Shown here piece by piece: positions 29,620-48,047 of a DNA stretch of 64,000 nucleotides. The position numbers were made by a program, and so were the translations under genes. Numbering within the stretch: position 1 is the stretch's first letter; each line of letters opens with the position of its first letter. A model generated the notes under the pieces. That model did not search any database. It worked only from the letters and a program-made list of their open reading frames with translations, and was not told the origin of the DNA. The stretch comes from Microbacterium wangchenii (GTDB taxonomy: Bacteria > Actinomycetota > Actinomycetes > Actinomycetales > Microbacteriaceae): the NCBI RefSeq assembly GCF_004564355.1, contig NZ_CP038266.1:3658001-3722000 (forward strand), written 5' to 3'.

Positions 29620-31257
29620 TCAGATCCCGGCGACGCGGCCCACCAGATTGACCTTCACGCCGATCCGGTGGAACATCGCCGCCTTGGCGATGAGCGCCTT
29701 GTCGGCCGTCTCGGCGTCGGGGGCGTAGACGACCTGCGCGTGGTTGGCCTTGTGCCGCGCCATGAACTGATCGCGCGAGACGTCGTGCAGCACGACGTGC
29801 GCGATCGGCCACTCCGGGTTCGTCGCGGCCTTTCGCCGCTCGGTCTCCTCGGCGGGCAGTTCGACCGCCGTCCCACGGAAGATGTCGACCTGGAGGATGC
29901 CGTCGGCGATGAACACACGAGAGACGACCAGTTCGCCCGGGCGGGACACGCCGTTGACGGTGGAGCCGCCGGCGGGGAAGAACACCGGGTCCTGACGCCA
30001 GCCCTCCGCGTGGTCCCATCCGCCCAGGTGGGAGGCCGGGACCGACCCCGAGATCTCGTACACCCAGACGAACCGGCCGTCGTAGTCCTCGCCCCATCGC
30101 ACGTCGTGCAGGGTGTTGTCGGACACGAGGCCCATGGCGCTCCACACGCGGTCGGTGACCAGCGCGTCCACGGCGACGCCTTCGTCGGCCTCGTTGAAGT
30201 GCGGCAGCGGACGGCCGGCGAACAGCTCACGCTCACCGTCGCGGGAGCGCACGGGCGGGCGCTCGGTGGAGTTCAGCATCCCTTCGGCGAGGTCGGAGGC
30301 CGGCACGAGATCCTTCAGGCCCTGCTGATACTGGATGCCGATGGCGTCCACGCCGAAGTCGTCGGCCATACGCAGGGCGGCGATGTACATCTTCATCTGC
30401 CACTGCACCTGGCCGCGCGTGAGCTCGGTGGCCTCATCCTCGCCGAGGCGGAAGGTCATGCCGTGGGAGACGAGCCACTCGTACGCGGCGTCGGCCTCCT
30501 CGTCGGGCACGCGCAGCATCTCGGCGTACAGCGCCGACTGCGAGAGCCGCTCCTTGTAGATCCCGATCGGGTTGAGCAGCTCGTCGTCGAAGATCGCGTT
30601 GTACATGCCCATGCAGCCCTCGTCGAAGACGCCGATGAGCGCCTTCTCGGCCAGCAGCCGGTCGCCCAGGGCACGTCCGAGCTGCACCTCGGCGGTGTCG
30701 GGGAGGGTGGGGAGCGCACGCACGTGGGAGGCGTCGTGGATGATGCGGCCGGTCTCGCACCACTGGCGGATGCCCTCCGCGAACCACTCGTCGGAGAAGT
30801 CGACCGACCAGATGCTGGAGTACTCCTTGCCCATCTTCGTCAGGCCCGCGTTCAGTCCGAGCAGGCCGACGAGGCCCGGCCAGTCCCCCGCGAAGTTCGC
30901 GACGGTGAGGATGGGCCCCTCGTGGGTGCGGAGCCCGGGCAGGACGTGGTGGGAGTACTGCCACACCGCTTCGGCGACGATCAGCGGGGCGTCCACGGGA
31001 ATGCGCGTGAAGACCTCGAGACCCATTCGCTGGCTGGAGATGAAGCCGTGCCCAGTGGCGGGGTCGACGTCGTTGGCGCGGATGACGCTCCAGCCGAGCG
31101 ACTCGAACGCGCGCGTCACCGCCGCCTCCATGGCGGCCTGCGTGGCCCAGCCGGCGACGTTGGCCGACTCGCGGAGGTCTCCGCTCGCGATGAGGTAGGC
31201 GGTCTTCGGCTCGCTCTGGGGGCGGGTCACGGGGGCGGGCAGGGTGTAAGTGCTCAT
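29620..31257 (-). CDS. L-fucose/D-arabinose isomerase-family protein
   Basis: The product is 545 aa of the FucI/AraA fold. The segment from residue about 215 (FDEGCMGMYNAIFDDELLNP, then GIYKERLSQSALYAEM) matches the L-fucose isomerase family, and the C-terminal RHKANHAQVVY carries the His that helps hold the metal. L-fucose isomerases also convert D-arabinose to D-ribulose, because the two sugars share stereochemistry at C2-C4. Its ATG overlaps the GH116 stop by 4 nt, so it is co-translated with a candidate D-arabinofuranosidase. That makes D-arabinose the likely substrate by inference. No ribulokinase is adjacent. Confidence 0.78.
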   Translation of the reverse strand: MSTYTLPAPVTRPQSEPKTAYLIASGDLRESANVAGWATQAAMEAAVTRAFESLGWSVIRANDVDPATGHGFISSQRMGLEVFTRIPVDAPLIVAEAVWQYSHHVLPGLRTHEGPILTVANFAGDWPGLVGLLGLNAGLTKMGKEYSSIWSVDFSDEWFAEGIRQWCETGRIIHDASHVRALPTLPDTAEVQLGRALGDRLLAEKALIGVFDEGCMGMYNAIFDDELLNPIGIYKERLSQSALYAEMLRVPDEEADAAYEWLVSHGMTFRLGEDEATELTRGQVQWQMKMYIAALRMADDFGVDAIGIQYQQGLKDLVPASDLAEGMLNSTERPPVRSRDGERELFAGRPLPHFNEADEGVAVDALVTDRVWSAMGLVSDNTLHDVRWGEDYDGRFVWVYEISGSVPASHLGGWDHAEGWRQDPVFFPAGGSTVNGVSRPGELVVSRVFIADGILQVDIFRGTAVELPAEETERRKAATNPEWPIAHVVLHDVSRDQFMARHKANHAQVVYAPDAETADKALIAKAAMFHRIGVKVNLVGRVAGI

Positions 31258-33836
31258 GCGTTGTCCTCGACTAGCTGACGGGCGTGGGATGCGGTGGCGG
31301 TGTGGCTCGCTCCGACTCCGAGACGGAGGCGAGCGGGGGTCTCGGAGGGGGTGGCGGAGATCGGCAGCTCGCGCCCGGCCAGCAGAAGGCGATCGAGCTC
31401 GAGCGTCCCGCCGTGCACGTGCAGCGCGACCGTCTCACCGTCGATCTCGACGCGCCCCCACCCCGTGCCCGTGGTGAACAACGAGCGGAAGGGCCGGTCG
31501 CCGACGGGGTCGAAGGCGAGCGTGCGGGTGGGCGCGTCCCACTGGACGCCGCTGAAGGCCAGCAGCAGTCCCCATGACGCGAGCGAGCGCGCATAGTGGT
31601 TGCCGCACTCGATCTCGTTCCACGGATTGCGCGCGTCGCCGGCGTACCGGGCGCGCACGGCGCGCTCGATCCGCAGCGCCTGATCCGGAAGGCCGGCGTA
31701 GACGAGGGATGCGGCCACCTGGTGCTCGACGCCGGTCCACACCTCGTCGGAGTACACGAAGGGGATGGCGGGCCGCCCGCCGCGCGGCCACGAGGCCAGC
31801 AGGAGTCCGCCTTCGTCGTTGAGGGCGTAGACGCGCTGCGTGCTCTCGTGCGTGCTGAGGTCGTCGCGGAAGTTGTGCGTGACGACGGCGCCCAGCGCGC
31901 TGCGCAGCCGGTGGCGCGGGAGGAGGTCGCCGAGCCCGTTGATCCACGCATGGAACTGGCCCAGCAGCTGGTCGGAGAGCACCCCGTCGCCGTACTGGTA
32001 CCGGTGCGCGTCGACGTCGTCGATCACCTGCCGGTAGTACTCCCCGTTCCACAGCACGTCATCCATGCCGCCGGAGGCGCGCTCGGCCCGGTCACGCCAT
32101 CCCGCCGCGCGCGCGGAGTCGCCGAGGTGGTCGGCCATGCGGGCTCCCGCTCTCAGCGCTGCGGCGAAGAAGCCGTTCGCGAGCGGATCGACGCCGTGGA
32201 ATTCGATGTCGTAGGTGTTGTGCAGCTCACCGTCGAGCAGTCCGTCCCCATCCCGATCCCAGGCATCGACTGCGTGCTCGAGGGAGCGGACGGCGGCCGG
32301 CCACAGTTCGCGGAGGAAGTCGTCATCGCCGCAGAACCGCCACTCCCGGTACAGGCGCAGGAACGTCCCGAGCTGGCCGTCGACGGCGGGCCCCATGAAC
32401 CAGGACGGACTGCCGAACACGCGATTGGACCGGAACTTCTGCGCCCCCGCGGCATCCGTCTCCAGCAGGTACTCCACGCGTCGCGCGCTGCGCTCCAGTG
32501 ACGGGAACAGCCACGCCATGGTCTGGGCGTACGACCACACGTGGGTGCACGTCCCCTCGCAGGATCCGGAGTGGTCGAAGGATCCCTCCCACGCCGCGAA
32601 GACCGGCCCCTCCCCCAGCTCCGGATTCGGCGTCTCGACGACGAAAGCGGTGGTGGATCGGGCTGCGGCGAGGTTCGCCCCGACCGCATCCGCCACGACC
32701 GGATCCAGTGTGCCGCCGTAGAGCGCGTCGACGAAGGCGAGTGTGGCGGCCTCCAGCTCGGGCAGCGCGCCGTGCAGGTGGCTCGCCGCCGCCCACGCAT
32801 CCGGCCACAGCATCGCGTAGTGGTTGCGCACGATCTCGTCGGCATGCGGATCGTCGAACACGATGTGGCCCCGCCAGGCACGTCGCCGGTTCGGGAAGCT
32901 CCATGCCAGCACGAACTCGAATGCGCGGCTCTCGCCGGGGGCGATGTCGTGGACGATGCCGAGCGATCCCGTGCGCAGGCGGGGGAGCCGCTCGAACAGC
33001 TCCTCCTCCGTCATGGGCGCGGATGCGTCGGCCGGTACCGAGTCCGCGAACAGACCGCGCGGACGGTCCTCGAGGGTGAGCTTCGGTTCCGGGTCGAGGC
33101 GGCCGTCGTCGGAGAGGTCGTTCCAGAACAGGCGGGGTCCGTCGGGCCAGAACCCGGTCACCCACTGGGGCTTCACGGTGGTCGCCGCATCCGTCGTGGT
33201 GAGACTGAGGGTGCCGTAGCCGGGGTCGTCCTCGGGGAGGCGGATGCCGAAGTCCAGGCCCCGCACGGCGCCTTCGTCGCGCCACCGTACCGTCTGCGCG
33301 GCGCGCATGCCGAAGGGGCCCTCGCCGCGCCCGGCGGTATGGCTCACACTGCCGACGATCGTCACGGCGACGGAGCGGTCGCCGGGATTGGTGACGGTGT
33401 AGCGCAGCACCGCACCGGGGATGCCGGAGGCGTCGGCGTCGAGGGGGACGAGGGGCGTGAAGGCGCGAAGCGACACCTGGACGGGGAGGACGTCGTCGGC
33501 GAAGTCGATGTCGACGACCGGATACTCCCCGTGCATCGTCGCCGACTGCAGACGCGGCAGGCCGGCGAGCCGGTCGAAGGGGTAGCCCGCGTCGCCGTCG
33601 TGGCGGCCCGTCAGGCGCGCTTCCAGGACGCGGGTCACCGCGGGCCCGCTCAGCGGCGCGGCGTGGATCGCGAAGAAGGAGTACGGGTTGAACCGCCCTT
33701 TGTCGGGGAGGTTCTCCAGTTCCCAGTCACGGAGTTCTCCGCGGGCGCCGAGCGACACGTTCCCCGTGCCCAGTCCCCCCAGCGGGAACGCCGCCCGCTC
33801 CGCCGTGTGCGGGATGGCACGGGCCCGCCGCGTCAC
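31254..33836 (-). CDS. GH116-family glycoside hydrolase, candidate exo-beta-D-arabinofuranosidase
   Basis: The product is 860 aa. A beta-sandwich N-terminal domain (about 1-330) precedes an (alpha/alpha)6 catalytic domain, the GBA2-like layout. Candidate catalytic acids are Glu427 in SCEGTCTHVW and Asp543 in HNTYD, which would align with the nucleophile and acid/base of archaeal GH116. The family includes glucosylceramidases, beta-glucosidases, beta-xylosidases and the Microbacterium exo-beta-D-arabinofuranosidase. There is no signal peptide, so it works in the cytosol. The leftward promoter at 33995-34023 carries the LacI-type operator in its spacer. Neighbours GH172 and GH183 favour arabinan as substrate; GTG 33836 has only a weak ribosome site. 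Confidence 0.88.
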   Translation of the reverse strand: MTRRARAIPHTAERAAFPLGGLGTGNVSLGARGELRDWELENLPDKGRFNPYSFFAIHAAPLSGPAVTRVLEARLTGRHDGDAGYPFDRLAGLPRLQSATMHGEYPVVDIDFADDVLPVQVSLRAFTPLVPLDADASGIPGAVLRYTVTNPGDRSVAVTIVGSVSHTAGRGEGPFGMRAAQTVRWRDEGAVRGLDFGIRLPEDDPGYGTLSLTTTDAATTVKPQWVTGFWPDGPRLFWNDLSDDGRLDPEPKLTLEDRPRGLFADSVPADASAPMTEEELFERLPRLRTGSLGIVHDIAPGESRAFEFVLAWSFPNRRRAWRGHIVFDDPHADEIVRNHYAMLWPDAWAAASHLHGALPELEAATLAFVDALYGGTLDPVVADAVGANLAAARSTTAFVVETPNPELGEGPVFAAWEGSFDHSGSCEGTCTHVWSYAQTMAWLFPSLERSARRVEYLLETDAAGAQKFRSNRVFGSPSWFMGPAVDGQLGTFLRLYREWRFCGDDDFLRELWPAAVRSLEHAVDAWDRDGDGLLDGELHNTYDIEFHGVDPLANGFFAAALRAGARMADHLGDSARAAGWRDRAERASGGMDDVLWNGEYYRQVIDDVDAHRYQYGDGVLSDQLLGQFHAWINGLGDLLPRHRLRSALGAVVTHNFRDDLSTHESTQRVYALNDEGGLLLASWPRGGRPAIPFVYSDEVWTGVEHQVAASLVYAGLPDQALRIERAVRARYAGDARNPWNEIECGNHYARSLASWGLLLAFSGVQWDAPTRTLAFDPVGDRPFRSLFTTGTGWGRVEIDGETVALHVHGGTLELDRLLLAGRELPISATPSETPARLRLGVGASHTATASHARQLVEDNA

Positions 33837-33994
33837 GCGGCCACCGCCGCGGGATCCGCAGGCGTGCGCGCCACGCCCGGACGGCTCGACGGCCGGCGCA
33901 CGGGGGGTGCGTCATCGGCGCCGAGCGGGCAGCGGACGGACATCGGATCCTCCTGGATCGACGGCGGACGAGCCGCGTCCGCCGTACCGCGTTC

Positions 33995-34023
33995 ACTTTA
34001 GACGAAATCGATTTCACGATCAA
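33995..34023 (-). promoter_or_regulatory. Promoter of the GH116-isomerase operon with embedded LacI operator
   Basis: On the minus strand the -35 TTGATC and -10 TAAAGT are separated by exactly 17 bp. The spacer contains the perfect palindrome GAAATCGATTTC (34004-34015). A repressor bound there would block RNA polymerase. The 18-nt block TAGACGAAATCGATTTCA is identical at the ABC-importer promoter (43208-43236). Confidence 0.75.
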
Positions 34024-34087
34024 CCGAGGGCACACGCCGGGAGTTTCGACGCGGCTACGGCCCTGAGCGCGGCGGAGTGACCGCGCG

Positions 34088-35077
34088 TCAGGCGGTGTTC
34101 GCGCCGCGTGCCGGGCGCACCTCGTTGCGCAGCACCACCGTGCGCGCGGGCTGATCATCGCCGTTGATGCGCTCGAGCAGCATCTTGGCCGCCGTGACGC
34201 CCATGTGGCGCGCGGGGAGCCGCACCACGGTGACGGCGTTGGGCGTCAGCGTCGTGAACGGGAGCGAGCCCACGACGGCCACGCCGATCTCGGGTGGGGT
34301 GAGCGCGTGCTCGGTGAGGACCTGGATCGCGCCGACGCCGAGGAGGTTGTTCGCCGCGACGACGGCGTCGGGCGGCTCGGGGAGAGCGAGGAGCTCCTCC
34401 ATCGCCTCACGGCCGCCGTCGACGCGGAACGTGGAGTACCGCAGCAGTTCCTCGGAAGAGGCCTCCGGGAAGTGCCGCGCGACGACGCCACGCCACCCCT
34501 CCGCGCGCTCGTACGCCGTCTCGATGTGCTGCGGACCGGTGATGCAGGCGATCCGGCGGTACCCGGCCTGAACGAGGTTCTCGGTCGCCGCCTGGCCGGC
34601 GGTGCGATTGGCCATGACGACACCGTCGATGTCGTAGCCGGTGCCGCGGTCGACCGCGACGACCGGCCGCCCGGTGGCCAGGAGGTCGTCAAGGTTGGAG
34701 TGATCGGATGCCGCGGCCAGGATCACGCCCGCCATGTGCTCGGCGATCGCGATCTGGAGGTAGGTCGCTTCCTTCTCGATCTCGGAGTCGGTGTTGCACA
34801 GGACGACGGAGTACCCCGCCTGCGAGGCGACGTCCTCCACTCCACGCGCCATCTCGGTGAAGTAGGGGTTCTCGATATCGGGGATGACGAGCGCGATCAC
34901 TTCCGAGGCCTGGCGGCGGAGGGTCCGCGCGGTGCGGTTGGGCGTGAAGTTCAGCTGGCGCGCGGCCTCGCGCACGGCGAGGGTCTTGGAGTCCGACACC
35001 CCGATGCCGTTGAACACGCGCGACACCGTGGCCGGTGAGACGCCGGCGAGCTTCGCGACCTCGTAGATCGTGGCCAT
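34088..35077 (-). CDS. LacI-family regulator of the D-arabinan locus
   Basis: The product is 329 aa. The N-terminal HTH reads TIYEVAKLAGVSPATVSRVF, with a hinge helix near residues 48-58 (TARTLRRQASEV) and a periplasmic-binding-protein-like sugar-sensing domain. ATG 35077 follows GGGGTGAG. It is divergent from the GH172 gene, and the near-palindrome TTGAAATCGATTCCAA lies between them. The same operator precedes GH116 and the ABC importer, so this protein is the best candidate to control all of them. The inducer may be D-arabinose or a D-arabinan oligosaccharide (inference). Confidence 0.92.
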   Translation of the reverse strand: MATIYEVAKLAGVSPATVSRVFNGIGVSDSKTLAVREAARQLNFTPNRTARTLRRQASEVIALVIPDIENPYFTEMARGVEDVASQAGYSVVLCNTDSEIEKEATYLQIAIAEHMAGVILAAASDHSNLDDLLATGRPVVAVDRGTGYDIDGVVMANRTAGQAATENLVQAGYRRIACITGPQHIETAYERAEGWRGVVARHFPEASSEELLRYSTFRVDGGREAMEELLALPEPPDAVVAANNLLGVGAIQVLTEHALTPPEIGVAVVGSLPFTTLTPNAVTVVRLPARHMGVTAAKMLLERINGDDQPARTVVLRNEVRPARGANTA

Positions 35078-35105
35078 CTCACCCCATCCCGCGCCGCGGC
35101 CCGCG

Positions 35106-35152
35106 TTGACTTTCCCCGCGAGCCAACAGTACCGTGTTGAAATCGATTCCAA
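35106..35152 (+). promoter_or_regulatory. GH172 operon promoter and LacI operator
   Basis: TTGACT (35106-35111) and TACCGT (35130-35135) are spaced 18 bp apart and would start transcription near 35142. The operator TTGAAATCGATTCCAA (35137-35152) then covers the start point. Its core differs from GAAATCGATTTC by one base. The site may also control the divergent lacI gene. Confidence 0.65.
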
Positions 35153-35206
35153 GCGCTCGCCGCTTCTTCGACGCCCCCGCGTACCGAGACGAGGATGTCC
35201 TGCCCG

Positions 35207-36349
35207 ATGAATGCACCGCGCGTACCCGCCCCTGATCTTTCGTCCATCTCCGGTCTGTGGCCGCTGCAGACCCGGTCCATCTCCCCGGAGAACTTCGACG
35301 GCGCGGTGGGTGGAGGCGGCCGGGCCACGGAAGGCACGGGGGCCGCCAGTGCGCGCGATCTCGGGCCCGGGTGGAAGATCTCCCCGAGCGTCGACATCAA
35401 AGCCGGTGAGACGTTCGATCTGGCCGCGATCGAGGGCGCCGGGAAGATCACGCACATCTGGATCACCACGCACACCGACAACTGGCGCACCCTCGTCCTG
35501 CGGGCGTACTGGGACGGCGCCGACGAGCCCGCCGTCGAAGTGCCGTACGGCGACTTCTTCTGCAACGGGTGGGGCGTGTTCGCCCAGGTGAACTCGCAGC
35601 CGATCGCGGCGAATCCGCACGGCGGGTTCAACTCGTACTGGCCCATGCCGTTCCGAGACGGGGCGCGCCTGACGCTGGAGAACACCTCCGTCGTCGATGT
35701 GCGCGTCTACTTCCAGATCACCTACGAAATCGGCGGGGACTACACCGGAGACGGCTACTTCCACGCGCAGTGGCGGCGCTCCAACCCGCTCGGCGAGCTC
35801 GTCCCGCACACGATCCTGGAGGGCATCGAGGGGCAGGGGCAGTACGTCGGCACGTATATCGCGTGGGGTGTGAACTCCAACGGCTGGTGGGGCGAAGGCG
35901 AGATCAAGTTCTATCTCGACGACGACACCGACTATCCGACGATCTGCGGCACCGGCACCGAGGACTACTTCGGCGGTGCGTGGAACTTCGACATCCCCGG
36001 TCAGGGATACACCGAGTTCTCCACCCCGTACCTGGGGATGCCGCAGGTCATCCGCCCCGACGGGCTCTACGTCAGCCAGCAGCGCTTCGGCATGTACCGC
36101 TGGCACCTGCTGGACCCGATCTTCTTCTCCTCCGGAGTGCCGAAGGTCGACATCCAGGCGCTCGGGTGGCGCAGCGGATGGCGCTACCTGCCGCTGCGCG
36201 ACGACATCGCATCGACGGCGATGTTCTACCTCGACCGGCCCACCGCGCGCCGGCCGAAGTCACCGACCGCCGACGACATGGAGGTCCACCTAGGGACCGC
36301 CCCCGTGCCCGACATCGGCGCCACCCCTCCCCGCGCGCCGCAGGACTGA
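35207..36349 (+). CDS. GH172-family (DUF2961) glycoside hydrolase, candidate exo-alpha-D-arabinofuranosidase
   Basis: The product is 380 aa. The DUF2961 double jelly-roll core is clear, with ITHIWITTHTDNWR, the acidic GEGEIKFYLDDD (Glu230, Glu232) and ICGTGTEDYFGGAWN (Glu252), the likely catalytic acids. Known members are Bifidobacterium difructose-dianhydride/alpha-fructofuranosidase enzymes and exo-D-arabinofuranosidases that act on mycobacterial arabinan. There is no signal peptide, so it is cytosolic. ATG 35207 is preferred over 35195 because GAGGA lies 11 nt before it. It leads a rightward operon with two DUF4185-type genes, the next starting 5 nt after its stop. Confidence 0.88.
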   Translation: MNAPRVPAPDLSSISGLWPLQTRSISPENFDGAVGGGGRATEGTGAASARDLGPGWKISPSVDIKAGETFDLAAIEGAGKITHIWITTHTDNWRTLVLRAYWDGADEPAVEVPYGDFFCNGWGVFAQVNSQPIAANPHGGFNSYWPMPFRDGARLTLENTSVVDVRVYFQITYEIGGDYTGDGYFHAQWRRSNPLGELVPHTILEGIEGQGQYVGTYIAWGVNSNGWWGEGEIKFYLDDDTDYPTICGTGTEDYFGGAWNFDIPGQGYTEFSTPYLGMPQVIRPDGLYVSQQRFGMYRWHLLDPIFFSSGVPKVDIQALGWRSGWRYLPLRDDIASTAMFYLDRPTARRPKSPTADDMEVHLGTAPVPDIGATPPRAPQD

Positions 36350-36354
36350 GGACC

Positions 36355-37518
36355 GTGAAGGCGCCGCGGGCCGCCGGGACGGGAGTCCTCGTCGTGGCCC
36401 TGGCACTGTCGGCCTGCTCGGCGACGCCTGAGCGGCCCTCGCCCGACGCCCCCCTGCGCGGCGAGGTCGCGGACGGCGTGACGGTGGTGGGCGTCTCCGA
36501 CGGAGACCTGTGGCCCAGCTGCTGGGCGGAGGACGACGCGCTGTACGCCGCGAACGGCGATGGCGGCGGGTTCGGCTTCGAGTTCTTCGACATCGCGGTC
36601 AATCGCCTCACCGGTTCACCCGAGGACGAGGCGGGAGTGGAGGGCGAGTTCCTCGCCGGCGGAGACGCGCTCGGCCAGGTGTGGTCGGGCGCGCAGTTCA
36701 CCCGCAAGCCCACCGGGATGCTGTGCACCGACGAGGCGATCTACCTCGCCGTGCAGGATCTGCGGCTCGACTTCAACGAGGCCCCGGCAGCGACGATCGC
36801 CCGCAGTGACGACCACGGCGAGACCTGGACGTGGGATACGGCCACCCCGATGTTCGGTGACGGCGTCTTCACGACGATCTGGTTCGCCGACTACGGGAAG
36901 GCGGGCCGGCACGCACCTGACCCGGAGTATGCGTACGCGTACGGCCTCGACGGCAATTGGCGCGACTCCTTCGACGACTCGGCGCCCGATCCCACCGAGC
37001 TCTTCCTGGCGCGGGTTCCGCTGGCGTCGGTGCAGGACGCGGCCACGTGGGAGTTCTACGCCGGCGAGCCCGGCGCCTCCGAGCCGACGTGGAGCCCGGA
37101 CATCGCGCGCAAGCGGCCGGTGCTGATCGACGAGCGGCGGAGATACCCGACGGACGCGGCGGTGCAGCCGGGACAGACCGTCGGGGCTCGGAACCTCAGC
37201 GTCCTCTCGCAGGGCGGGGTGACGTTCCTGCCGGCGCTCGAGCGATACGTCTACACCTCGTGGACCGAGCTCACCTTCGAGTTCTACGAAGCTCCCGCAC
37301 CGTGGGGGCCGTGGAAGCTGTTCCTCTCCGAGGACTTCGGGCCGTACCCGTGGACTCAGGACCGCTTCGGCGGCTACGGCACATCGATCCCCTCGAAGTT
37401 CCTGTCCGAGGACAACCGCCGCGTGTGGGTGCAGTCCAACGTGTGCCCCTGCGCCCCGGCGGGCATGTCGTCGTATTGGTTCGGCCTGCGACCCCTCGAC
37501 CTGGATCTGGACGGGTGA
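36355..37518 (+). CDS. Lipoprotein with DUF4185-like beta-propeller domain
   Basis: The product is 387 aa. The N-terminal signal ends in a lipobox ALSAC (Cys21), so it should be tethered on the outer face of the membrane. The body shows propeller-like repeats, including a sialidase-type SDDHGETWTW. Near the N-terminus GDLW (Asp51) and NGDG (Asp69) are 18 residues apart, the same spacing as the acid pair of the neighbouring secreted DUF4185 enzyme (Asp64, Asp82). It may be a surface arabinan-cleaving or arabinan-binding partner. GTG 36355 lies 5 nt after the GH172 stop, preceded by TGAGGA. Catalytic activity is not certain. Confidence 0.72.
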   Translation: MKAPRAAGTGVLVVALALSACSATPERPSPDAPLRGEVADGVTVVGVSDGDLWPSCWAEDDALYAANGDGGGFGFEFFDIAVNRLTGSPEDEAGVEGEFLAGGDALGQVWSGAQFTRKPTGMLCTDEAIYLAVQDLRLDFNEAPAATIARSDDHGETWTWDTATPMFGDGVFTTIWFADYGKAGRHAPDPEYAYAYGLDGNWRDSFDDSAPDPTELFLARVPLASVQDAATWEFYAGEPGASEPTWSPDIARKRPVLIDERRRYPTDAAVQPGQTVGARNLSVLSQGGVTFLPALERYVYTSWTELTFEFYEAPAPWGPWKLFLSEDFGPYPWTQDRFGGYGTSIPSKFLSEDNRRVWVQSNVCPCAPAGMSSYWFGLRPLDLDLDG

Positions 37519-37597
37519 AGGCGGCAGCATCCGGGCATCGACGACGCAGACGCGTCCGCTGACGGAGCGGACCAGGCGAGGAGAGAAGGAGAGTGCG

Positions 37598-39133
37598 ATG
37601 AGGCCTCGAAGAACAGCGGTGGCAGGAACGGCCATCGCGGGCCTGGCCATGGCGGGGGTGCTCGCCGTCGGCGGCATCAGTCCGGCGCTGGCCACGGATG
37701 CGAAGACCCCGGTGACGGTGGTGGAGAAGCTGACCGGCCCCGACGCCCCGAACAACACGTGGGGGCGGTGGGACATCAAGGCGACCGACCTGGGCGTGAT
37801 GTGGGACGACGGTGACGGACGCATCCTCACGGCGTTCGGCGACACCTTCGGCAACGGCTGGGTGGGGCCGGGCGGAGGGTCGGGACCCAACGGCAACTGG
37901 CGCAGCAACGTGCTGGTGCGCTCCAGTGACCGCGACCTCTCCGACGGCATGCTCTTCGAGAGCGCCCCGCAGTCGCCCCAGGGCATCGCCAAGGAGCTGA
38001 TCCCGTCCAAGAAGGTCAGCGGCGACGAGATGACCACGATTCCCACGGCGGGGATCTCGGTGGGCGATCGTCAGTACATGGGGTTCATGTCGGTGCGCCA
38101 GTGGGGCGAGCCGGGCTACTGGGACACCAACTACGCCGGGATCGCCTATTCCGACGACGACGGGGAGAACTGGACGGTCTCATCCACGAAGTGGGAGAAC
38201 GACGCCGACGGGACGAATCCGTTCCAGATGCAGGCTTACGTCAAGAAGGGCGGCGACGTCTACGTCTTCGGCACCCCCAACGGACGCCAGGGCGCCGTGC
38301 ACGTGGCCAAGGTCTCGCCCCGGAAGATGCTCGACAAGGGCTCCTACCGCTACTGGGACGGCCGGCGCTGGTCGAAGTCGGAGGCGGATGCGGCGCCCGT
38401 GGTCCCCGCACCGGCCAGCGAGCTCTCCGTGCACTACGACAGCTTCAGCAAGCGGTTCCTGCTGATGACCCTGTCGGGCGAGGACATCGTCCTGCGCACG
38501 GCGAAGAACCCGGAGGGCCCGTGGACCGACCCGCAGGTCGTCGCCAGTTCGTCGGACTACCCGGGCCTGTACGGCGGGTACTTCCATCCGTGGAGCGCCG
38601 ACGGCGTCATGTATTTCGCGATGTCGCAGTGGAGTCCGTACAACACCTACCTCATGCGCATGCAGATCGACCGCGACGGCGTCATCGTCAATCCCAACCT
38701 CGTGGCCGACCCGAGCTTCGAGCGCGGCACGACGATGGGCGACGGCACGAACGGCACGTGGGGGTGCACCCCGAACTGCGGGATCGACACGGCTCCTCCG
38801 GAGTCGTTCTCCGGTGATCGCAACGCGTTCGTGCGCTTCGACTCCGGTTGGCGGAACATCTGGCAGAACGTCGACGTGCAACCGGGAACCGACTACCGGC
38901 TCAGTGGGTTCGTGCGCACCTCGATCAACAGCGATGCCGGGTTTTTCGGCGCACGCTCGCTGGACGGCCAGGTGATCGGCGAGGCCCACTTCATTTCGGT
39001 CGGTCCCTGGACGAAGTTCACCGTGGACTTCAACAGCGGCGCCCATGAGGACGTGCAGGTCTTCGCCGGGGTCTGGACGAACAGCGGGGACATCTGGCTG
39101 CAGGCCGACGACATCGCCCTGATCCGGCGGTGA
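37598..39133 (+). CDS. Secreted DUF4185 (GH183-type) enzyme, candidate endo-D-arabinanase
   Basis: The product is 511 aa. A Sec signal peptide ends at SPALA (about residue 32). The DUF4185 propeller follows with TDLGVMWDDGDGRILTAFGDT, in which Asp64 and Asp82 are the expected catalytic acids. A second domain from about residue 365 (NLVADPSFERG onward) looks like a carbohydrate-binding module of the CBM4/9 type. GH183 enzymes cut internal alpha-1,5 D-arabinofuranosyl links of mycobacterial arabinogalactan and lipoarabinomannan. GAAGGAGAG precedes the ATG. It is the only plainly secreted enzyme in the locus, so it would start the degradation. Confidence 0.87.
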   Translation: MRPRRTAVAGTAIAGLAMAGVLAVGGISPALATDAKTPVTVVEKLTGPDAPNNTWGRWDIKATDLGVMWDDGDGRILTAFGDTFGNGWVGPGGGSGPNGNWRSNVLVRSSDRDLSDGMLFESAPQSPQGIAKELIPSKKVSGDEMTTIPTAGISVGDRQYMGFMSVRQWGEPGYWDTNYAGIAYSDDDGENWTVSSTKWENDADGTNPFQMQAYVKKGGDVYVFGTPNGRQGAVHVAKVSPRKMLDKGSYRYWDGRRWSKSEADAAPVVPAPASELSVHYDSFSKRFLLMTLSGEDIVLRTAKNPEGPWTDPQVVASSSDYPGLYGGYFHPWSADGVMYFAMSQWSPYNTYLMRMQIDRDGVIVNPNLVADPSFERGTTMGDGTNGTWGCTPNCGIDTAPPESFSGDRNAFVRFDSGWRNIWQNVDVQPGTDYRLSGFVRTSINSDAGFFGARSLDGQVIGEAHFISVGPWTKFTVDFNSGAHEDVQVFAGVWTNSGDIWLQADDIALIRR

Positions 39134-39136
39134 TGC

Positions 39137-39178
39137 GGGCGGCCGGTCCGCGGGCGCGCTGCCCCGGGCCGGCCGCCC
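39137..39178. terminator. Possible bidirectional terminator between convergent genes
   Basis: GGGCGGCCGG (39137-39146) pairs with 39169-39178 around a 22-nt GC-rich loop that can fold further. It begins 3 nt after the stop of the DUF4185 gene and lies 17 bp from the stop of the convergent kinase-like gene. Confidence 0.5.
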
Positions 39179-39194
39179 CGGCCTCATCACGAAC

Positions 39195-39800
39195 TCATCG
39201 AAGCGGCGACGGGCGCGCACGGGTGACCGCCTCGCGCACCCAGGCCTCCACCCGGGTGGCGACCTCCCGCGGCTGCAGGGCATCGGTGCCGATGACCTCG
39301 GCCGCCCAGCGAGGATCGCCCTTCGACCAGTCCGCCCACCGGCCCCACCGCATCCCGGTGGCGTTGTCGAGGCGGATCACCTCGGCGCCGTCAGCGGGAT
39401 CGAGGGTGTGCCGCAGGAACCACTCGCCGAACCGGATGTGGTGCACGATGTCCGCTTCCGCATATCCGCGCCGTCGAAGGCGCTCGGCGCGAACGGCCGC
39501 CGAGCAGTGCAGCAGACACACCTCGATCGCGTCGAGACGATCCGCCGAGGGTGCGGCCAAGAGCTCTCCCATCGGCACCTGACCGAACAGCACGAGGTGC
39601 ACGCCGCTCGTCTGAAGCGATACCGCCCTCTGCACCCACTGCTCGACTGCGGCGTGCCGCCACGCGGTGTCGGCGTCGGGCGGCACCCCCACGCTGTCGA
39701 ACTCCGCGCACTCCAGCGGCAGGCCCCGGGCCGCATCGGCCAGTGCAGCAAGCGTGGTGGACTTCCCGGCCGCGCTGGCGCCGGTGACGAGGAGCAGCAC
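39195..39800 (-). CDS. P-loop nucleotide kinase-like protein (AAA_33 type)
   Basis: The product is 201 aa. The Walker A loop GASAAGKST is at residues 7-15, and a lid-like region with LHCSAAVRAERLRRRG lies in the middle. The fold suggests a small-molecule or nucleoside kinase; it is not a FGGY or PfkB sugar kinase, so it is not an obvious ribulokinase. It begins 45 nt after the ABC permease stop on the same strand, with GAGGAGG before GTG 39800, so it may be read through from the importer operon. Its role in the locus is unknown. Confidence 0.7.
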   Translation of the reverse strand: MLLLVTGASAAGKSTTLAALADAARGLPLECAEFDSVGVPPDADTAWRHAAVEQWVQRAVSLQTSGVHLVLFGQVPMGELLAAPSADRLDAIEVCLLHCSAAVRAERLRRRGYAEADIVHHIRFGEWFLRHTLDPADGAEVIRLDNATGMRWGRWADWSKGDPRWAAEVIGTDALQPREVATRVEAWVREAVTRARPSPLR

Positions 39801-39845
39801 GGTCCTCCTCGGGTCGTCTCGCCTGCGTCGCTTTCGGCGTCGCGG

Positions 39846-40715
39846 CTATTTGAGGCCGGCCATCTTGATGTTGCCGATGATCTGGCGCTGGAAGATCAGG
39901 AAGATGATGATGACCGGTGCCGCCGCGAGGGTGGACCCGGCCATGAGCAGCCCCAGCTCGGTCGCCCGCTCCGAGCGGAACGTGGCGAGGTACTGCTGCA
40001 CGACGAACTGGTCGGGCGAGGTGATCGTGAGGATCGGCCACACGTAGGAGTTCCAGTAGGCGAGGAACGCCGTGATCCCCATCACCACGAACGGCGGCTT
40101 CGACAGGGGCAGGAAGACGTTGACGAAGATGCGGAAGCGTCCGCAGCCATCGAGCATCGCCGCCTCCTCGAGGCTCGAGGGGATGCTGAGGTAGAACTGC
40201 CGGATGAAGAAGATGGTCCCCGCGCTGGCCGCGCCCGGGATGACCAGGACGGCGAGCGTGTCGAGCATCTGCAGGTTCGTCACGACGATGAAGCTCGTCA
40301 GCAGGATGGTCATGCCGGGGATGAACATCGTCGTGATGACGATGACCCACAGCGTGCGCTTGAAACGGAAATCCAGGCGCGCGAAGGCGTACGCCGCGAG
40401 CGAATTGACCGACAGGGCGAGCACGGTGAACAGCACCGCTCCCAGGAAGGTCCACAGCATCGTCCGGGTGAAGGTCGGATCGGCCAGGATCTGCGCGTAG
40501 TTCTCCCACAGCCACACCTCGGGGAAGAACTGGAACGGCGTCTGCACGACCTCGGTGCGCGACTTGAAGCCGGCGATCACCATCCACGCGAGCGGGAACA
40601 GCGCGGCCAGGACGAAGACCACTCCGATGATCGCCTTGCCGACCGCGAACAGCCACCACCGCGCGTCGCGCGTGACGCGACGCGTCGGGAGGACGGCGGG
40701 GGATGCGACGGCCAT
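39846..40715 (-). CDS. Carbohydrate ABC importer permease (MalG-like)
   Basis: The product is 289 aa with six membrane helices. The EAA loop that docks on the ATPase is SLEEAAMLDGCGRFRIFVNV. It is the second permease of a CUT1-family sugar importer. ATG 40715 overlaps the stop of the first permease by 1 nt. As usual for CUT1 systems no ATPase gene is present, so a shared MsiK-type ATPase elsewhere must power it. The leftward operon is driven from the operator-bearing promoter at 43208-43236. Confidence 0.92.
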   Translation of the reverse strand: MAVASPAVLPTRRVTRDARWWLFAVGKAIIGVVFVLAALFPLAWMVIAGFKSRTEVVQTPFQFFPEVWLWENYAQILADPTFTRTMLWTFLGAVLFTVLALSVNSLAAYAFARLDFRFKRTLWVIVITTMFIPGMTILLTSFIVVTNLQMLDTLAVLVIPGAASAGTIFFIRQFYLSIPSSLEEAAMLDGCGRFRIFVNVFLPLSKPPFVVMGITAFLAYWNSYVWPILTITSPDQFVVQQYLATFRSERATELGLLMAGSTLAAAPVIIIFLIFQRQIIGNIKMAGLK

Positions 40716-41668
40716 CAGTCGACCAGCCTCTCGGAGTTGACGAATCGGAAGACCAGCGCCGAGACCGACCCCAGCACCACGAACAGCAGTAGCGCCGCCG
40801 CGATGGAGTAGCCGACGTTGATGTCGTTGCGGAAGTGGTTGAAGATGAACAGGTTCGGCAGCGTGGTGGAGTCCAACGGCCCGCCGCCGGTCATCACGAG
40901 GGGCAGTTCGAACTGCTGGATGGCCGCGACGAATCCGGTGATGAGGAGATACAGCAGCACGTTCTTCATCTGGGGGATCGTGATGTACCGCGTCTTCTGC
41001 CACCAGTCGGCGCCCTCCATCGCCGCCGCCTCGTAGTACTCCGTCGGCACGTCCACCATCGCCGCGACCATGATGAGCGAGGTCAGGCCCATCCCCAGCC
41101 AGATCGCCGGGATCGCGATGGCCAGCAGCGCCCACGCCGGGTCGCCGATCCACGCGATCGGGTCGATGCCGAACAGCGACAGCGTGGCGTTGAGCAAGCC
41201 CCCGGAGTAGTTGTAGATCAGCGCGAAGATGATCGAGGTGATGACGGCCGAGATGATCGTCGGGATGTAGATGCTCACCTTGAGCAGTCCGGCGAAGCGG
41301 CGCGAGACGCTCACGACGAGGCTGGCGAAGAAGAATGCCAGGATGAGCATCGGCGGCACGGTCATGGCCACGAACGCGAACCCGCGGCCGATCGCGGCCC
41401 AGAACAGCGGGTCGCTCAGCACGTTGGTGAAGTTCCGCCAGCCGACGAACTCCGGGTCTTTGTAGAAGCTCCAGTCCTGGAACGACAGGAAGGTCGCATA
41501 GACCGCCGGCCACGCGACGAAGATGCCCAGCAGCACCACCGCCGGCAGGATGAACAGGTAGGCGCTCCGGCCGTCGCGGAACCTCGTGCGGCTGACGCCG
41601 CCGCGGGGTCGGCGACCGGGCAGGATCATCGGCTCGGTCTCGGTCATCATCGTCTGCGTCGCGGTCAC
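40715..41668 (-). CDS. Carbohydrate ABC importer permease (MalF-like)
   Basis: The product is 317 aa with six predicted membrane helices. The EAA motif is EYYEAAAMEGADWWQKTRYI. GTG 41668 is chosen because GAGGAGG lies 6 nt upstream; the longer in-frame start at 41689 falls ahead of that ribosome site. It partners the following permease in a CUT1 importer. A strong hairpin separates it from the binding-protein gene, as often seen where the binding protein is made in excess. Substrate is probably a D-arabinan oligosaccharide, by context. Confidence 0.92.
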   Translation of the reverse strand: MTATQTMMTETEPMILPGRRPRGGVSRTRFRDGRSAYLFILPAVVLLGIFVAWPAVYATFLSFQDWSFYKDPEFVGWRNFTNVLSDPLFWAAIGRGFAFVAMTVPPMLILAFFFASLVVSVSRRFAGLLKVSIYIPTIISAVITSIIFALIYNYSGGLLNATLSLFGIDPIAWIGDPAWALLAIAIPAIWLGMGLTSLIMVAAMVDVPTEYYEAAAMEGADWWQKTRYITIPQMKNVLLYLLITGFVAAIQQFELPLVMTGGGPLDSTTLPNLFIFNHFRNDINVGYSIAAALLLFVVLGSVSALVFRFVNSERLVD

Positions 41669-41694
41669 GTCGCACCTCCTCGTGCTCACACCGG

Positions 41695-41729
41695 CGACCC
41701 GGGGGCCGAAGCGATCGGCCCCCGGGTCG
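41695..41729 (-). terminator. Intercistronic hairpin between binding protein and permease genes
   Basis: CGACCCGGGGGCCGA (41695-41709) pairs perfectly over 15 bp with 41715-41729, with a 5-nt loop. It sits 8 bp after the binding-protein stop. It may partly terminate transcription or protect the upstream mRNA, giving more binding protein than permease. Confidence 0.7.
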
Positions 41730-41736
41730 GGTGAGG

Positions 41737-43089
41737 TCAGTCCTTCGGCGCCTTGCTGGGCAGGTCGTCGCGCTGGATCACCGTAGTGATCGCGTCGCTC
41801 GCGGTCTTGATCGCGTCATCCACCGAGGCAGCGCCCTTCATGGCCGACTCCATCGCGGTGCCGACGGCCAGCGAGACATCCCACGGGTAGGTGGGCTCGG
41901 GGATGGCCGTGGGTGCGATGTCGTTCACGATGATGCCCGACCAGGGTGCATCCGCCGCCGCCGGGTCGGCGGCCACAGCCTCCTGCACGGCGTCGCGCAC
42001 GGGCACCTTCGTGAACTGCGTGTTGACGAAGAACGGGACGAGGTTCTCGGCGTCGCCACCGATGGCCCACTCGAGGAAGGCGCCGGCGGCTTCGGCGTTC
42101 TTCGTCTTGGCGTCGACCACCCACTTGAAGTTGCCGAGCGTCGTGGCGGTGTCGCCGGCTGCGGAGTCGGCGTTCGGGAACGCGCCGATGCCGGTCGCAC
42201 CGAGCAGGTCGGGGAAGTCCGAGCCGATCTCCGACATCATCCACGAGCCGGAGACCTTGAAGGCCACCTTCTCCTCGCCGAAGTCCTGGCCTTCGACGTA
42301 GGCGGCCAGCGCCTGCTTGGGCATGTAGCCCTCGTCCCACAACGACTTGTAGCTGTTCATCAGCTCGCGGTATCCGTCATCGTCGATGTCAGGCTCGCTC
42401 CAGTCCGATGACAGCGCGGTGTGACCGGCGAAGTTGTACTGCTGGCCGACGGTCGACCACGCGAAGGTCGGCGCATCGCTGGCCGGGGAGATGCAGTACT
42501 GACCCTCGCCCAGAGTGGGCTGGATGGCCGCGCACATGTCGAGCAGCTCGCTCCAGGTGGCCGGTCCCGTCTCGGGGTCGAGGCCCGCGGCGGAGAGCAT
42601 GTCCTTGTTCCAGAAGAGCACGGTCTGCGGCTCGAGCAGGAGCGGGTAGGCGTAGAAGGTGTCTCCGACGGCGGACACCGGCTTCGCGGCGTCGATGATC
42701 TCCCCGAGCGCCTCGTCGGAGACGATCCCGTTGAGCTCGTGGAGCTGCCCGGCGTTGACGGCGTCCTGGATCGCACCCGGGTGGGTGTAGACGTCGGGCG
42801 CCTTGCCTGCGGCCTGAGCCGACTTCATCTTCTGGTCCCACGCGTCGGCCGGCACCTCCGTGGCGACGACCTTGACCTCGTCCTGGGACTCGTTGAACTG
42901 CTTGACGATGTCGGCGTACCACTCGTTCTCGGCAGGCGTGAACGTGCGGTGCCAGAACTGAACCGTAGCGACACCGTCCTCGCCGCTCCCGCCGCCGCTG
43001 GCTCCGCACCCCGCCAGCAGTGCGCCGATGCCGAGAGCACTGATCGCAATGACCGCGCCACGACGGCTGCGCGATGTCGTCCGCTTCAT
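41737..43089 (-). CDS. Sugar ABC importer solute-binding lipoprotein
   Basis: The product is 450 aa. The signal peptide ends in the lipobox GALLAGC, so the protein is anchored outside the cell by Cys. The mature part is a cluster-B (MalE-type) binding protein: VQFWHRTFTPAENEWYADIV near the start and many aromatic residues able to stack on sugar rings. Its promoter (43208-43236) contains the same operator as GH116. It is expected to capture arabinan oligosaccharides released by the secreted DUF4185 enzyme. The ligand is inferred. Confidence 0.92.
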   Translation of the reverse strand: MKRTTSRSRRGAVIAISALGIGALLAGCGASGGGSGEDGVATVQFWHRTFTPAENEWYADIVKQFNESQDEVKVVATEVPADAWDQKMKSAQAAGKAPDVYTHPGAIQDAVNAGQLHELNGIVSDEALGEIIDAAKPVSAVGDTFYAYPLLLEPQTVLFWNKDMLSAAGLDPETGPATWSELLDMCAAIQPTLGEGQYCISPASDAPTFAWSTVGQQYNFAGHTALSSDWSEPDIDDDGYRELMNSYKSLWDEGYMPKQALAAYVEGQDFGEEKVAFKVSGSWMMSEIGSDFPDLLGATGIGAFPNADSAAGDTATTLGNFKWVVDAKTKNAEAAGAFLEWAIGGDAENLVPFFVNTQFTKVPVRDAVQEAVAADPAAADAPWSGIIVNDIAPTAIPEPTYPWDVSLAVGTAMESAMKGAASVDDAIKTASDAITTVIQRDDLPSKAPKD

Positions 43090-43207
43090 GACTTCCTCCT
43101 CAGGAGCCGACTCGTCGATGAGTCCTTCGCTGTATCCGACCTCCGTGGTCGGTCTTGGTGCCGAGCGGGCGGCGGCCCGGAGCCGACGTCATGAGCTCGT
43201 CGGGGCC

Positions 43208-43236
43208 ACACTAGACGAAATCGATTTCATCTGCAA
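43208..43236 (-). promoter_or_regulatory. Importer promoter with embedded LacI operator
   Basis: On the minus strand TTGCAG (-35) and TAGTGT (-10) are 17 bp apart, and the spacer carries GAAATCGATTTC (43217-43228). The block TAGACGAAATCGATTTCA is identical to the one at 34000-34017, tying the importer to the GH116 operon. Confidence 0.75.
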
Positions 43237-43355: not shown

Positions 43356-43367
43356 GCAATCGATTTC
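43356..43367. promoter_or_regulatory. Weaker second LacI-type site
   Basis: GCAATCGATTTC differs from the operator core by one base and lies about 140 bp upstream of the importer promoter. It might be an auxiliary operator used in looping. It could also be chance. Confidence 0.35.
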
Positions 43368-43532: not shown

Positions 43533-44555
43533 TCACACGCCGCGCTCTGCGAGTGCAGAGAGGTCCGCGACTAGTTCCGACAAAGACCACCCGGCGGTCA
43601 CCGGGTTCAACACCCCGGTCAGACGACTTAGGCCATGATCGGCGATCGGACTGCCGGCTGCGCCGCACAACGCACCGACGAGGGCAGGAAGGCTGTCCTG
43701 GTGACGCGTGATCGATAGCGCGAGGGGGAGCGCCCGCTCGTGATCACCGTCGGTGCCGCGCAGGATGGCCAGCGCCAGCGGCAGCGTCTCGGTGACAGTG
43801 CCGCCGTGGCTGTAGGTGCGCGGGGCGAACCGGGCCACGAGCGCCGGCACTGCAGCGAACGGCGAGGGCGCCGCATCCACAAGGGCGAACGCTTCGCGGA
43901 TGCCGTCGACGAGCCAGTCGTCAGCGGCGGCGAGGTCGGTGGCGTCTTCGAGCGCCGTGGCGAGCGCCGTTTCCCCGAGGAGCGAGGAGACCAGCCGGGC
44001 GACGACGGCTGCCGCGTGCACGCCGACGTCGTCATGCGTCAGCGTGGCGAGATCGCGCGCGACCTCTGCCGCCACCCGAGGCTCAGCCACGGCGATACCG
44101 ACCGCCAGGGATCCGGGCAGGGCGGTGTCGTCGTAGAACGCCGGGTTGTCCGCACCGGTCTGCGGCGGCCGGAGGCCAGCTGCCGCGTTCAGCAGCGCGG
44201 AGCGCTGCGCCGGTCCAGCCCAGGCGTCCTCCCCCGAGACGAGCCCGATCCAGGTCTCGAAGAGCGAATCGGCCGTCCACTCGTGCGTGTCCAGGAGCGT
44301 GCGCGCGGCGATGGCGAAGCCTTCGGCGTCGTCGGTGGCGACCAGCGGCGCTGCGCCGACCGCGGAGAGGACGAACGGAAGGACCGGACGGATGACGCGG
44401 CTGCTGTCCAATTGGGCCGCCCCCTCGCGGAGCATCCCCCGCACCCACGGGTCTCGTACCGTCCGGTGCTCGCTGGCCGGCGCCCCCAGCGCGTCACCCA
44501 GTGCGAGCCCGCGCACGAGAGCGGTCGCGCGGTGGCGGCGGTTCGAAGTCGTCAT
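43533..44555 (-). CDS. ADP-ribosylglycohydrolase-family protein, divergent copy
   Basis: The product is 340 aa. The N-terminal GLALGDALGAPASE and a TDDAE (residues 74-78) match the DraG/ARH family. The late metal motif that reads GRDSDT in its neighbour is here RHQDS, so one of the two Mg-binding Asp is His. It may have altered chemistry or be inactive. Its ATG overlaps the upstream paralogue's stop by 4 nt, so the two are co-translated. The family removes ADP-ribose from proteins or small molecules, or cleaves related N-glycosides. The link to the adjacent ABC importer suggests a catabolic, not signalling, role. Confidence 0.85.
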   Translation of the reverse strand: MTTSNRRHRATALVRGLALGDALGAPASEHRTVRDPWVRGMLREGAAQLDSSRVIRPVLPFVLSAVGAAPLVATDDAEGFAIAARTLLDTHEWTADSLFETWIGLVSGEDAWAGPAQRSALLNAAAGLRPPQTGADNPAFYDDTALPGSLAVGIAVAEPRVAAEVARDLATLTHDDVGVHAAAVVARLVSSLLGETALATALEDATDLAAADDWLVDGIREAFALVDAAPSPFAAVPALVARFAPRTYSHGGTVTETLPLALAILRGTDGDHERALPLALSITRHQDSLPALVGALCGAAGSPIADHGLSRLTGVLNPVTAGWSLSELVADLSALAERGV

Positions 44556-45547: not shown

Positions 45548-45552
45548 ATTCT

Positions 45553-45566
45553 CAGAACGTTTTGCG
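45553..45566. promoter_or_regulatory. Candidate LacI-type operator near the ARH gene start
   Basis: CAGAACGTTTTGCG resembles half of the perfect-armed site at 45650-45663, sharing TTTTGCG. It lies 5 bp upstream of the ARH start. A third related string, ACGTTTGCGTC, is at 45614-45624. Confidence 0.45.
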
Positions 45567-45649
45567 TCTTATGTCGTCTTCTGCCTGCGACGTAACCAGG
45601 AATTTACACGGTCACGTTTGCGTCTGCGGTCCGATTCTCGCATGCTGGT

Positions 45650-45663
45650 GCAAAACCTTTTGC
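45650..45663. promoter_or_regulatory. Candidate LacI operator upstream of lacI-ABC operon
   Basis: GCAAAA and TTTTGC form 6-bp perfect arms around a CC centre, 15 bp upstream of the lacI start. LacI-family sites often have this length and symmetry. It could control both the rightward importer operon and the leftward ARH pair. Confidence 0.6.
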
Positions 45664-45678
45664 GATGTGAGGAGCACG

Positions 45679-46665: not shown

Positions 46666-46706
46666 GTTCCCCAGCATCCCCTTCAACCACCATCAGAAAG
46701 AGCAAC

Positions 46707-48044: not shown

Positions 48045-48047
48045 TCC

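What the first reader, a model, noticed from the sequence alone, without database searches (positions are those of the whole stretch)
29620..43236. Complete candidate D-arabinan (mycobacterial cell-wall) utilisation locus
Seen: GH116, a FucI-type isomerase, LacI, GH172, a DUF4185-like lipoprotein, a secreted DUF4185 enzyme and a CUT1 importer lie together. Known: GH183 (DUF4185), GH172 and GH116 from Microbacterium and others are the endo-, exo-alpha- and exo-beta-D-arabinofuranosidases of mycobacterial arabinogalactan and lipoarabinomannan. Inferred: outside endo-cleavage, import, cytosolic exo-trimming to D-arabinose, then isomerisation. The integration of importer, isomerase, surface lipoprotein and shared regulator into one system appears little described.
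Basis: partly seen in the sequence, partly recalled or inferred. Interest (0 to 1): 0.9.

Follow-up and report, generated by a model that had tools for sequence, protein, structure and literature searches.

The report
Arabinan-eating gene cluster missing its kinase
This bacterium carries a gene cluster for eating the arabinose polymer of mycobacterial cell walls; the cluster is already known from a relative, but here its sugar kinase gene has decayed to a short leftover, so the last step is probably borrowed from elsewhere in the genome.

Summary
The genes are real and at the stated place. The three glycosidases are orthologues of characterised Microbacterium arabinogalactanolyticum enzymes (GH172 90%, GH116 74%, GH183 68% identical), with every tested catalytic residue kept. 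The system, with importer, isomerase, kinase and induction by D-arabinose, was published in 2023 (PMC10509167), so 'little described' is wrong. 'Complete' is wrong too: in relatives an FGGY kinase gene sits between GH116 and LacI; 29 of 35 sampled genus genomes with this GH172 have it, the window's genome and five others do not. In the window it survives as a 36-codon mini-ORF with the kinase's start and ribosome-binding site, its stop still overlapping the GH116 start. Loss needs at least four changes on a quick tree. AraB or XylB probably replaces it (inferred). Also new: a palindrome, GAAATCGATTTC, whose exact copies lie only at or near this locus or the isomerase in 14 genomes, and a GH183-fold lipoprotein whose third essential carboxylate is Gln. 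The host also carries arabinogalactan-type biosynthesis genes. Verdict: new variant of a known kind.

The parts
29620..31257 (-). FucI-type isomerase, predicted D-arabinose to D-ribulose
   Evidence: PF02952 over cut-off; AlphaFold model pLDDT 88.9, best Foldseek match D-arabinose isomerase 3A9R, E 1.7e-19; in all 35 sampled genus genomes that have this GH172, in pieces in two
31254..33836 (-). GH116 exo-beta-D-arabinofuranosidase, no signal peptide seen by eye
   Evidence: 73.9% identical to ExoMA2, 1397 bits to 8IC6; E431, D557, R483, H446 all kept
33833..33943 (-). 36-codon remnant of the FGGY kinase gene: its ribosome-binding site and first codons; stop overlaps the GH116 GTG start by 4 bases
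34004..34015 (.). operator-like site GAAATCGATTTC in front of kinase remnant, GH116 and isomerase
34088..35077 (-). LacI-family repressor
   Evidence: PF00356 and PF00532; relative in 39 of 40 locus stretches
35139..35150 (.). operator-like site, 1 mismatch, between LacI and GH172
35195..36349 (+). GH172 exo-alpha-D-arabinofuranosidase, no signal peptide seen by eye (start may be 35207)
   Evidence: 90.0% identical to ExoMA1, 809 bits to 8IC8; N253, which excludes fructose, kept
36355..37518 (+). surface lipoprotein with GH183 fold (LipD); 64% identical to, and in the same place as, the gene I take as MIAR_33220
37598..39133 (+). secreted GH183 endo-D-arabinanase with C-terminal putative carbohydrate-binding domain
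   Evidence: 68.4% identical to EndoMA1, 799 bits to 8HHV; D33, D51, E243, R198, Y293 kept
39195..39800 (-). P-loop NTPase of unknown role, recurrent in these loci
   Evidence: AAA_18 24.9 bits, below cut-off; relative in 12 of 40 locus stretches
39846..40715 (-). CUT1 permease (MalG type)
   Evidence: PF00528, gene call
40715..41668 (-). CUT1 permease (MalF type; alternative start 41689)
   Evidence: PF00528, gene call
41737..43089 (-). CUT1 solute-binding lipoprotein
   Evidence: PF01547/PF13416; best PDB match 7BVT, one of the two named for MIAR_33310 in the paper
43217..43228 (.). operator-like site GAAATCGATTTC in front of the importer genes
43356..43367 (.). second operator-like site before the importer genes, 1 mismatch

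Best explanation
A LacI-controlled locus for eating external D-arabinan (arabinogalactan, lipoarabinomannan), a reduced member of the published Microbacterium arabinogalactanolyticum PUL. A secreted GH183 enzyme cuts the polymer; a GH183-fold lipoprotein holds or also cuts it at the cell surface; the CUT1 importer, whose ATPase was not seen in the block, takes in the oligosaccharides; cytosolic GH172 and GH116 trim alpha and beta ends to D-arabinose; the FucI-type isomerase makes D-ribulose. The locus's own FGGY kinase gene has been lost, leaving a mini-ORF that keeps the kinase's ribosome-binding site and the stop/start overlap with GH116, so GH116 can still be translated from that signal. 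D-ribulose is then phosphorylated by a general kinase, most likely AraB or XylB. Shown by sequence here: orthology, residues, operator-like sites, kinase loss and remnant. Inferred: substrate, transport, isomerase product, that LacI binds the sites, its effector, coupling, kinase replacement.
For: Enzymes align over nearly full length to 8HHV, 8IC8 and 8IC6 and keep all tested catalytic and specificity residues. The published PUL was recognised as L112/L113 because its GH172 is 100% identical to the ExoMA1 crystal sequence; gene order agrees with the MIAR numbers in the paper. Induction by D-arabinose and wall extract is published for that PUL. Operator-like site: in the own genome 4 of 5 matches with up to 1 mismatch lie in this locus, the fifth inside a coding frame, reversed-pattern control 0; in 13 further genomes the exact matches lie in the locus or within about 18 kb of its GH172 or of the isomerase, control 0. 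Kinase: between GH116 and LacI in relatives; 29 of 35 GH172 genomes keep it; own genome has no hit at E<=1e-60 (10 of 14 first-look candidates scored) and the best of its ten FGGY kinases is 34% identical. Remnant: peptide MSVRCPLGAD against MTVRCTLGVD, DNA 29 of 40 and 14 of 18 bases against L012; 4-base overlap with GH116 as in 24 of 27 intact loci, one genome counted twice. Two kinase-less genomes with the locus (G102, G367) have only four FGGY kinases each, best matched by the own GlpK-, XylB-, RhaB- and AraB-type genes at 68-74%. AraB phosphorylates D-ribulose in E. coli (PMC12307932 abstract and passages; PMC6452873 passages).
Against: No growth, expression or enzyme data exist for this strain in anything I saw. 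The isomerase is not specific to arabinan loci: 33 of 68 sampled genus genomes with it lack this GH172, and no PDB sequence matches it at E<=1e-3. The AraB label of the own kinase rests on its neighbour gene; NCBIfam gave it only XylB at 104 bits against a cut-off of 380. The host carries arabinogalactan-type biosynthesis genes, so a self-directed role is not excluded. That the mini-ORF is translated is untested.
Confidence: 0.86

Rival explanations
1. Self-recycling: the locus trims or salvages an arabinofuranose- or ribofuranose-bearing polymer made by the host itself, not foreign mycobacterial walls.
For: Own genome has an Emb-type arabinosyltransferase with all three Pfam domains, a decaprenyl-phosphate phosphoribosyltransferase over its NCBIfam cut-off, Glf over its cut-off and a GlfT2-type enzyme, within about 23 kb.
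Against: The locus's GH172 is in 71 of 366 genus genomes, while close Emb relatives look rare: in the protein search (7991 candidates scored, 120 of 230 hits listed) one at 96% and one at 56%, then 41% or less over nearly full length, two partial ones at 46-48%. Of the two ALO-domain proteins found neither is DprE1 by cut-off: best 89 of 500 bits. Importer plus isomerase speak for catabolism. Emb was not counted across the genus.
Confidence: 0.08
2. The pathway is broken: with the kinase gone, D-ribulose piles up and the locus is decaying.
For: Kinase orthologue absent in locus and genome.
Against: The three glycosidases keep their catalytic residues; the same loss recurs in separate lineages with isomerase, GH116, LacI and GH172 still there; the genome has kinases of types known to act on D-ribulose.
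Confidence: 0.05
3. The locus P-loop NTPase (39195-39800) is the replacement sugar kinase.
For: P-loop protein inside the locus, recurrent in such loci.
Against: Found also in loci that keep the FGGY kinase (L012, L014, L112, L121, L125) and not found in the fetched stretches of kinase-less L017, L104, L105.
Confidence: 0.06

Closest known systems
D-arabinan degradation PUL of Microbacterium arabinogalactanolyticum (MIAR_33170-33320, PMC10509167)
   Same: Isomerase, GH116, LacI, GH172, DUF4185 lipoprotein, EndoMA1-type GH183, NTPase, permeases and binding protein in the same order
   Different: Window lacks the FGGY kinase (remnant left), an SDR-like gene (by eye) after GH172, the EndoMA2-type GH183 and the further GH183 gene behind the binding protein
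Dysgonomonas gadei PUL42 (PMC10115798)
   Same: GH172 and GH183 with a predicted fucose isomerase (passages)
   Different: Bacteroidota PUL; not compared by sequence here; known from abstract, passages and sections 15, 17, 19 only
EHEC Aau D-ribulose uptake locus (PMC12307932)
   Same: A pentose locus without its own kinase that relies on AraB for D-ribulose
   Different: Imports the monosaccharide D-ribulose, no polymer enzymes; parallel in logic only; abstract and passages seen

Membership tests
GH183 endo-D-arabinanase (37598-39133) | DUF4185 domain and Asp33, Asp51, Glu243 | tested here: met
   381 bits; all three kept
GH172 exo-alpha-D-arabinofuranosidase | DUF2961 and Asn253 that excludes fructose | tested here: met
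   N264 in the window protein
GH116 exo-beta-D-arabinofuranosidase (ExoMA2 type) | Glu431, Asp557, Arg483, His446 | tested here: met
   1397 bits to ExoMA2 against 89 to the next PDB sequence. No subfamily tree was built
L-fucose / D-arabinose isomerase | FucI fold | tested here: met
   PF02952 over cut-off, PF07881 below cut-off; Foldseek rows 1-8 are FucI or D-arabinose isomerase, later ones L-arabinose isomerase, TM about 0.5
L-fucose / D-arabinose isomerase | activity on D-arabinose | not testable with these tools
   inferred from context only
GH183 enzyme (lipoprotein 36355-37518) | GH183 five-bladed fold | tested here: met
GH183 enzyme (lipoprotein 36355-37518) | the three essential carboxylates | tested here: not met
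   Asp33 and Asp51 positions kept; Glu243 position is Gln in 140 of 142 relatives (one Leu, one Arg) and in 22 of 22 locus rows (21 distinct), Glu in 62 of 63 GH183 rows with one gap; E243Q nearly abolishes EndoMA1. Profile alignment paired it with Asn instead. Hence not filed as an active endo-D-arabinanase
Microbacterium D-arabinan PUL | GH183, GH172, GH116, importer and isomerase together | tested here: met
Microbacterium D-arabinan PUL | kinase for the isomerised pentose | tested here: not met
   the published PUL has one, the window's has only a remnant
CUT1 importer | binding protein and two permeases | tested here: met
CUT1 importer | cognate ATPase | not tested
   none among the genes scanned in the block; a shared ATPase elsewhere was not sought

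The most novel reading that the evidence does not exclude
The host both builds an arabinogalactan-like wall polymer of its own (Emb, UbiA-type phosphoribosyltransferase, Glf, GlfT2 and an exporter in one cluster; perhaps with ribofuranose, since no DprE1 was recognised) and carries this locus to edit or recycle it, with the silenced GH183 lipoprotein as its surface receptor.
Probability: 0.08. Interest if true: 0.75.

Novelty: new variant of a known kind. Interest (0 to 1): 0.42.

Why it matters
The enzymes cut the polymer that shields mycobacteria, so orthologue sets with known residues are useful tools. The kinase loss shows how a specialised sugar pathway can hand its last step to general metabolism while an upstream translation signal is kept as a mini-ORF, apparently more than once. 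The palindrome gives a ready regulon test, and the conserved Glu-to-Gln lipoprotein clade gives a defined question about a protein (the MIAR_33220 type) whose function the authors call elusive.

Tried and rejected
Looked for the missing kinase: ten FGGY kinases in the own genome, none an orthologue; no orthologue of the PfkB-like kinase that stands beside the isomerase in other genomes, best hit in the eight kinase-less genomes 50%; no operator-like site marks another gene. The fifth own-genome match lies inside a coding frame and was set aside.

Profile comparison of the lipoprotein with GH183 put a gap at the Glu243 region and would pair Glu with Asn; MAFFT and the strand positions of the model fit an ungapped pairing with Gln. 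In neither case is the residue Glu. The lipoprotein may still be an enzyme: Glu305 is kept in 142 of 142.

The isomerase profile gave only a weak PDB sequence hit, 3A9R E 0.038. Foldseek TM-scores for it are about 0.5 with rmsd above 20, so fold membership rests on rank, E-value and probability. The lipoprotein profile gave only sialidase-type repeat matches in PDB.

Kinase remnants in L103/L104 are weak in the coding part (9-13 of 18 bases), though the 40 bases upstream fit L020, L115, L125 and L128 at 29-32; L016, L017 and L105 show no remnant by eye. The tree was the quick method with 7 open forks; four changes is a minimum on that tree. Emb could not be counted across the genus, searches being spent.

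Searches for print on Emb or arabinogalactan in Microbacterium: 79 papers, 20 listed; 0 papers each in the held library. For other arabinan-PUL papers: 20 of 21 listed; 17; 20 of 31 listed; 5 of 6 listed; in the listings only the two 2023 papers deal with such loci. Supplements were not open to me.

Full report
What is there. The block 29620-43236 holds, from left to right, isomerase(-), GH116(-), LacI(-), GH172(+), a DUF4185-like lipoprotein(+), a secreted DUF4185/GH183 protein(+), a small P-loop NTPase(-), two CUT1 permeases(-) and a CUT1 binding protein(-). The genome is a single 3.83 Mb contig. It belongs to Microbacterium by inference: its genus group holds G107, whose GH172 is 100% identical to ExoMA1 of Mi. 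arabinogalactanolyticum, and its near relative G085 (GH172 98%) has the contig length given for Mi. lushaniae.

Enzymes. GH172 is 90.0%, GH116 73.9% and GH183 68.4% identical to ExoMA1, ExoMA2 and EndoMA1 read from G107; against the crystal sequences they score 809, 1397 and 799 bits. The residues that the authors name for catalysis and for telling arabinose from fructose or glucose (PMC10509167 sections 8 and 9), as far as tested, are all kept. Of nine residues named in the putative carbohydrate-binding domain seven are identical.

What is already known. PMC10509167 (abstract, passages, section 6 part 1 of 2, sections 8, 9, 10 read) reports the same PUL with importer, isomerase and kinase, induction by D-arabinose and mycobacterial wall extract, and the same pathway scheme. 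I read that PUL from L112/L113; its gene order fits the MIAR numbers (which number is which gene is my assignment). The window locus is a reduced form: no kinase, no SDR-like gene, no EndoMA2-type and no further GH183 gene; the own genome has only two DUF4185 matches.

Kinase loss. In relatives an FGGY kinase gene lies between GH116 and LacI. Of 149 sampled genus genomes, 35 have this GH172 (82% identity or more; one in two pieces, two with a stop noted in the match), 49 have the kinase (69% or more), 68 the isomerase, two of them in pieces (sets recounted). All 35 and all 49 lie within the 68. Kinase is missing in 6 of the 35: the own genome, G074 (only a 45% relative), G085, G102, G126, G135; loci L016 and L017 lack it in place too. 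On a quick tree of 33 loci from four proteins (LacI lacking in one) the presence of the kinase needs at least 4 changes. In the window a 36-codon mini-ORF (33833-33943) starts MSVRCPLGAD where intact kinases of close relatives start MTVRCTLGVD, has the same AGGAGG signal, and ends in a GTGA overlap with GH116; 24 of 27 intact loci show the same 4-base overlap between kinase and GH116, one genome (L021, L122) counted twice. L102 has a 33-codon and L103/L104 16-codon versions with ATGA overlaps; in L101 the remnant is fused in frame to GH116. That the mini-ORF serves translational coupling is inference.

What replaces it. Two kinase-less genomes with the locus, G102 and G367, have four FGGY kinases each, best matched at 68-74% by the own GlpK-type, XylB-type, RhaB-type and AraB-type genes; the other kinase-less genomes (G085 9, G126 5, G135 5, G074 7, G366 5) were counted, not read. 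Own names: GlpK and XylB pass NCBIfam cut-offs, RhaB is below its cut-off, AraB rests on an AraA-like neighbour recognised by eye. E. coli AraB acts on D-ribulose (PMC12307932 abstract and passages; PMC6452873 passages citing Lee 2001). I put AraB or XylB at about 0.8.

Regulation. GAAATCGATTTC occurs with up to one mismatch five times in the own genome, four in this locus: before the kinase remnant, between LacI and GH172, and twice before the binding protein; the fifth is inside a coding frame; the reversed control gives 0. In 13 other genomes exact matches number 1 to 4 each and cluster at the locus; G004 has two about 17-18 kb from its GH172, one of them just before a GH183-type gene, and G086 and G128, which lack this GH172, have theirs next to or up to about 11 kb from the isomerase or kinase. 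In 35 locus stretches scanned (L021 and L122 one genome; L112 and L113 overlap), 128 of 130 matches with up to one mismatch are intergenic by my gene calls. LacI as binder of the site is inferred from linkage.

Isomerase. A FucI-fold protein found with or without arabinan genes: 20 sampled genomes have it with the kinase but without this GH172, 13 with neither. Of five fetched loci of the last kind, four (L106, L107, L108, L111) show it near a PfkB-like kinase and a DapA-like gene, L109 does not (names of these neighbours by eye). So it looks like a general D-arabinose module joined to the arabinan enzymes.

Host polymer. The own genome also has Emb, UbiA-type, Glf, GlfT2-type and exporter genes. 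This does not change the reading of the locus but keeps a self-directed role open.

Verdict. Real, mostly known; the new parts are the kinase loss with its remnant, the palindrome regulon and the altered lipoprotein clade.

Noticed in passing
own genome G000:C1 about 1056650-1079040 (L141, L146): Arabinogalactan-type biosynthesis genes in a host inferred to be Microbacterium: three-domain Emb arabinosyltransferase, decaprenyl-phosphate phosphoribosyltransferase over cut-off, Glf over cut-off, GlfT2-type, weak GlfT1 match and an ABC exporter; the two ALO-domain proteins scanned are not DprE1 by cut-off
   Followed up: partly
window 39195-39800(-) and L012, L014, L016, L101-L103, L112, L114, L121, L125, L129: A P-loop NTPase, relatives 51-93% identical (two only in part), stands at varying places within these loci (12 of 40 stretches) and has no named role
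   Followed up: partly
window 43533-49846: Next to the locus: two tandem ADP-ribosylglycohydrolase-type genes, a second LacI and a second CUT1 importer, a separate system of unknown substrate
   Followed up: no
L106, L107, L108, L111: The same isomerase near a PfkB-like kinase and a DapA-like gene, in the first three with tricarboxylate-type transporter genes, in genomes without this GH172 (neighbour names by eye)
   Followed up: partly
L113, L115, L125: A DapA-like gene with transporter genes lies beside the arabinan locus in three Microbacterium loci (names by eye)
   Followed up: no
L039, L041, L043, L049, L061, L072: Streptomyces loci with GH172, this isomerase, a kinase 61-62% identical to the Microbacterium one, an importer and LacI, five of the six with a lipoprotein relative
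   Followed up: no
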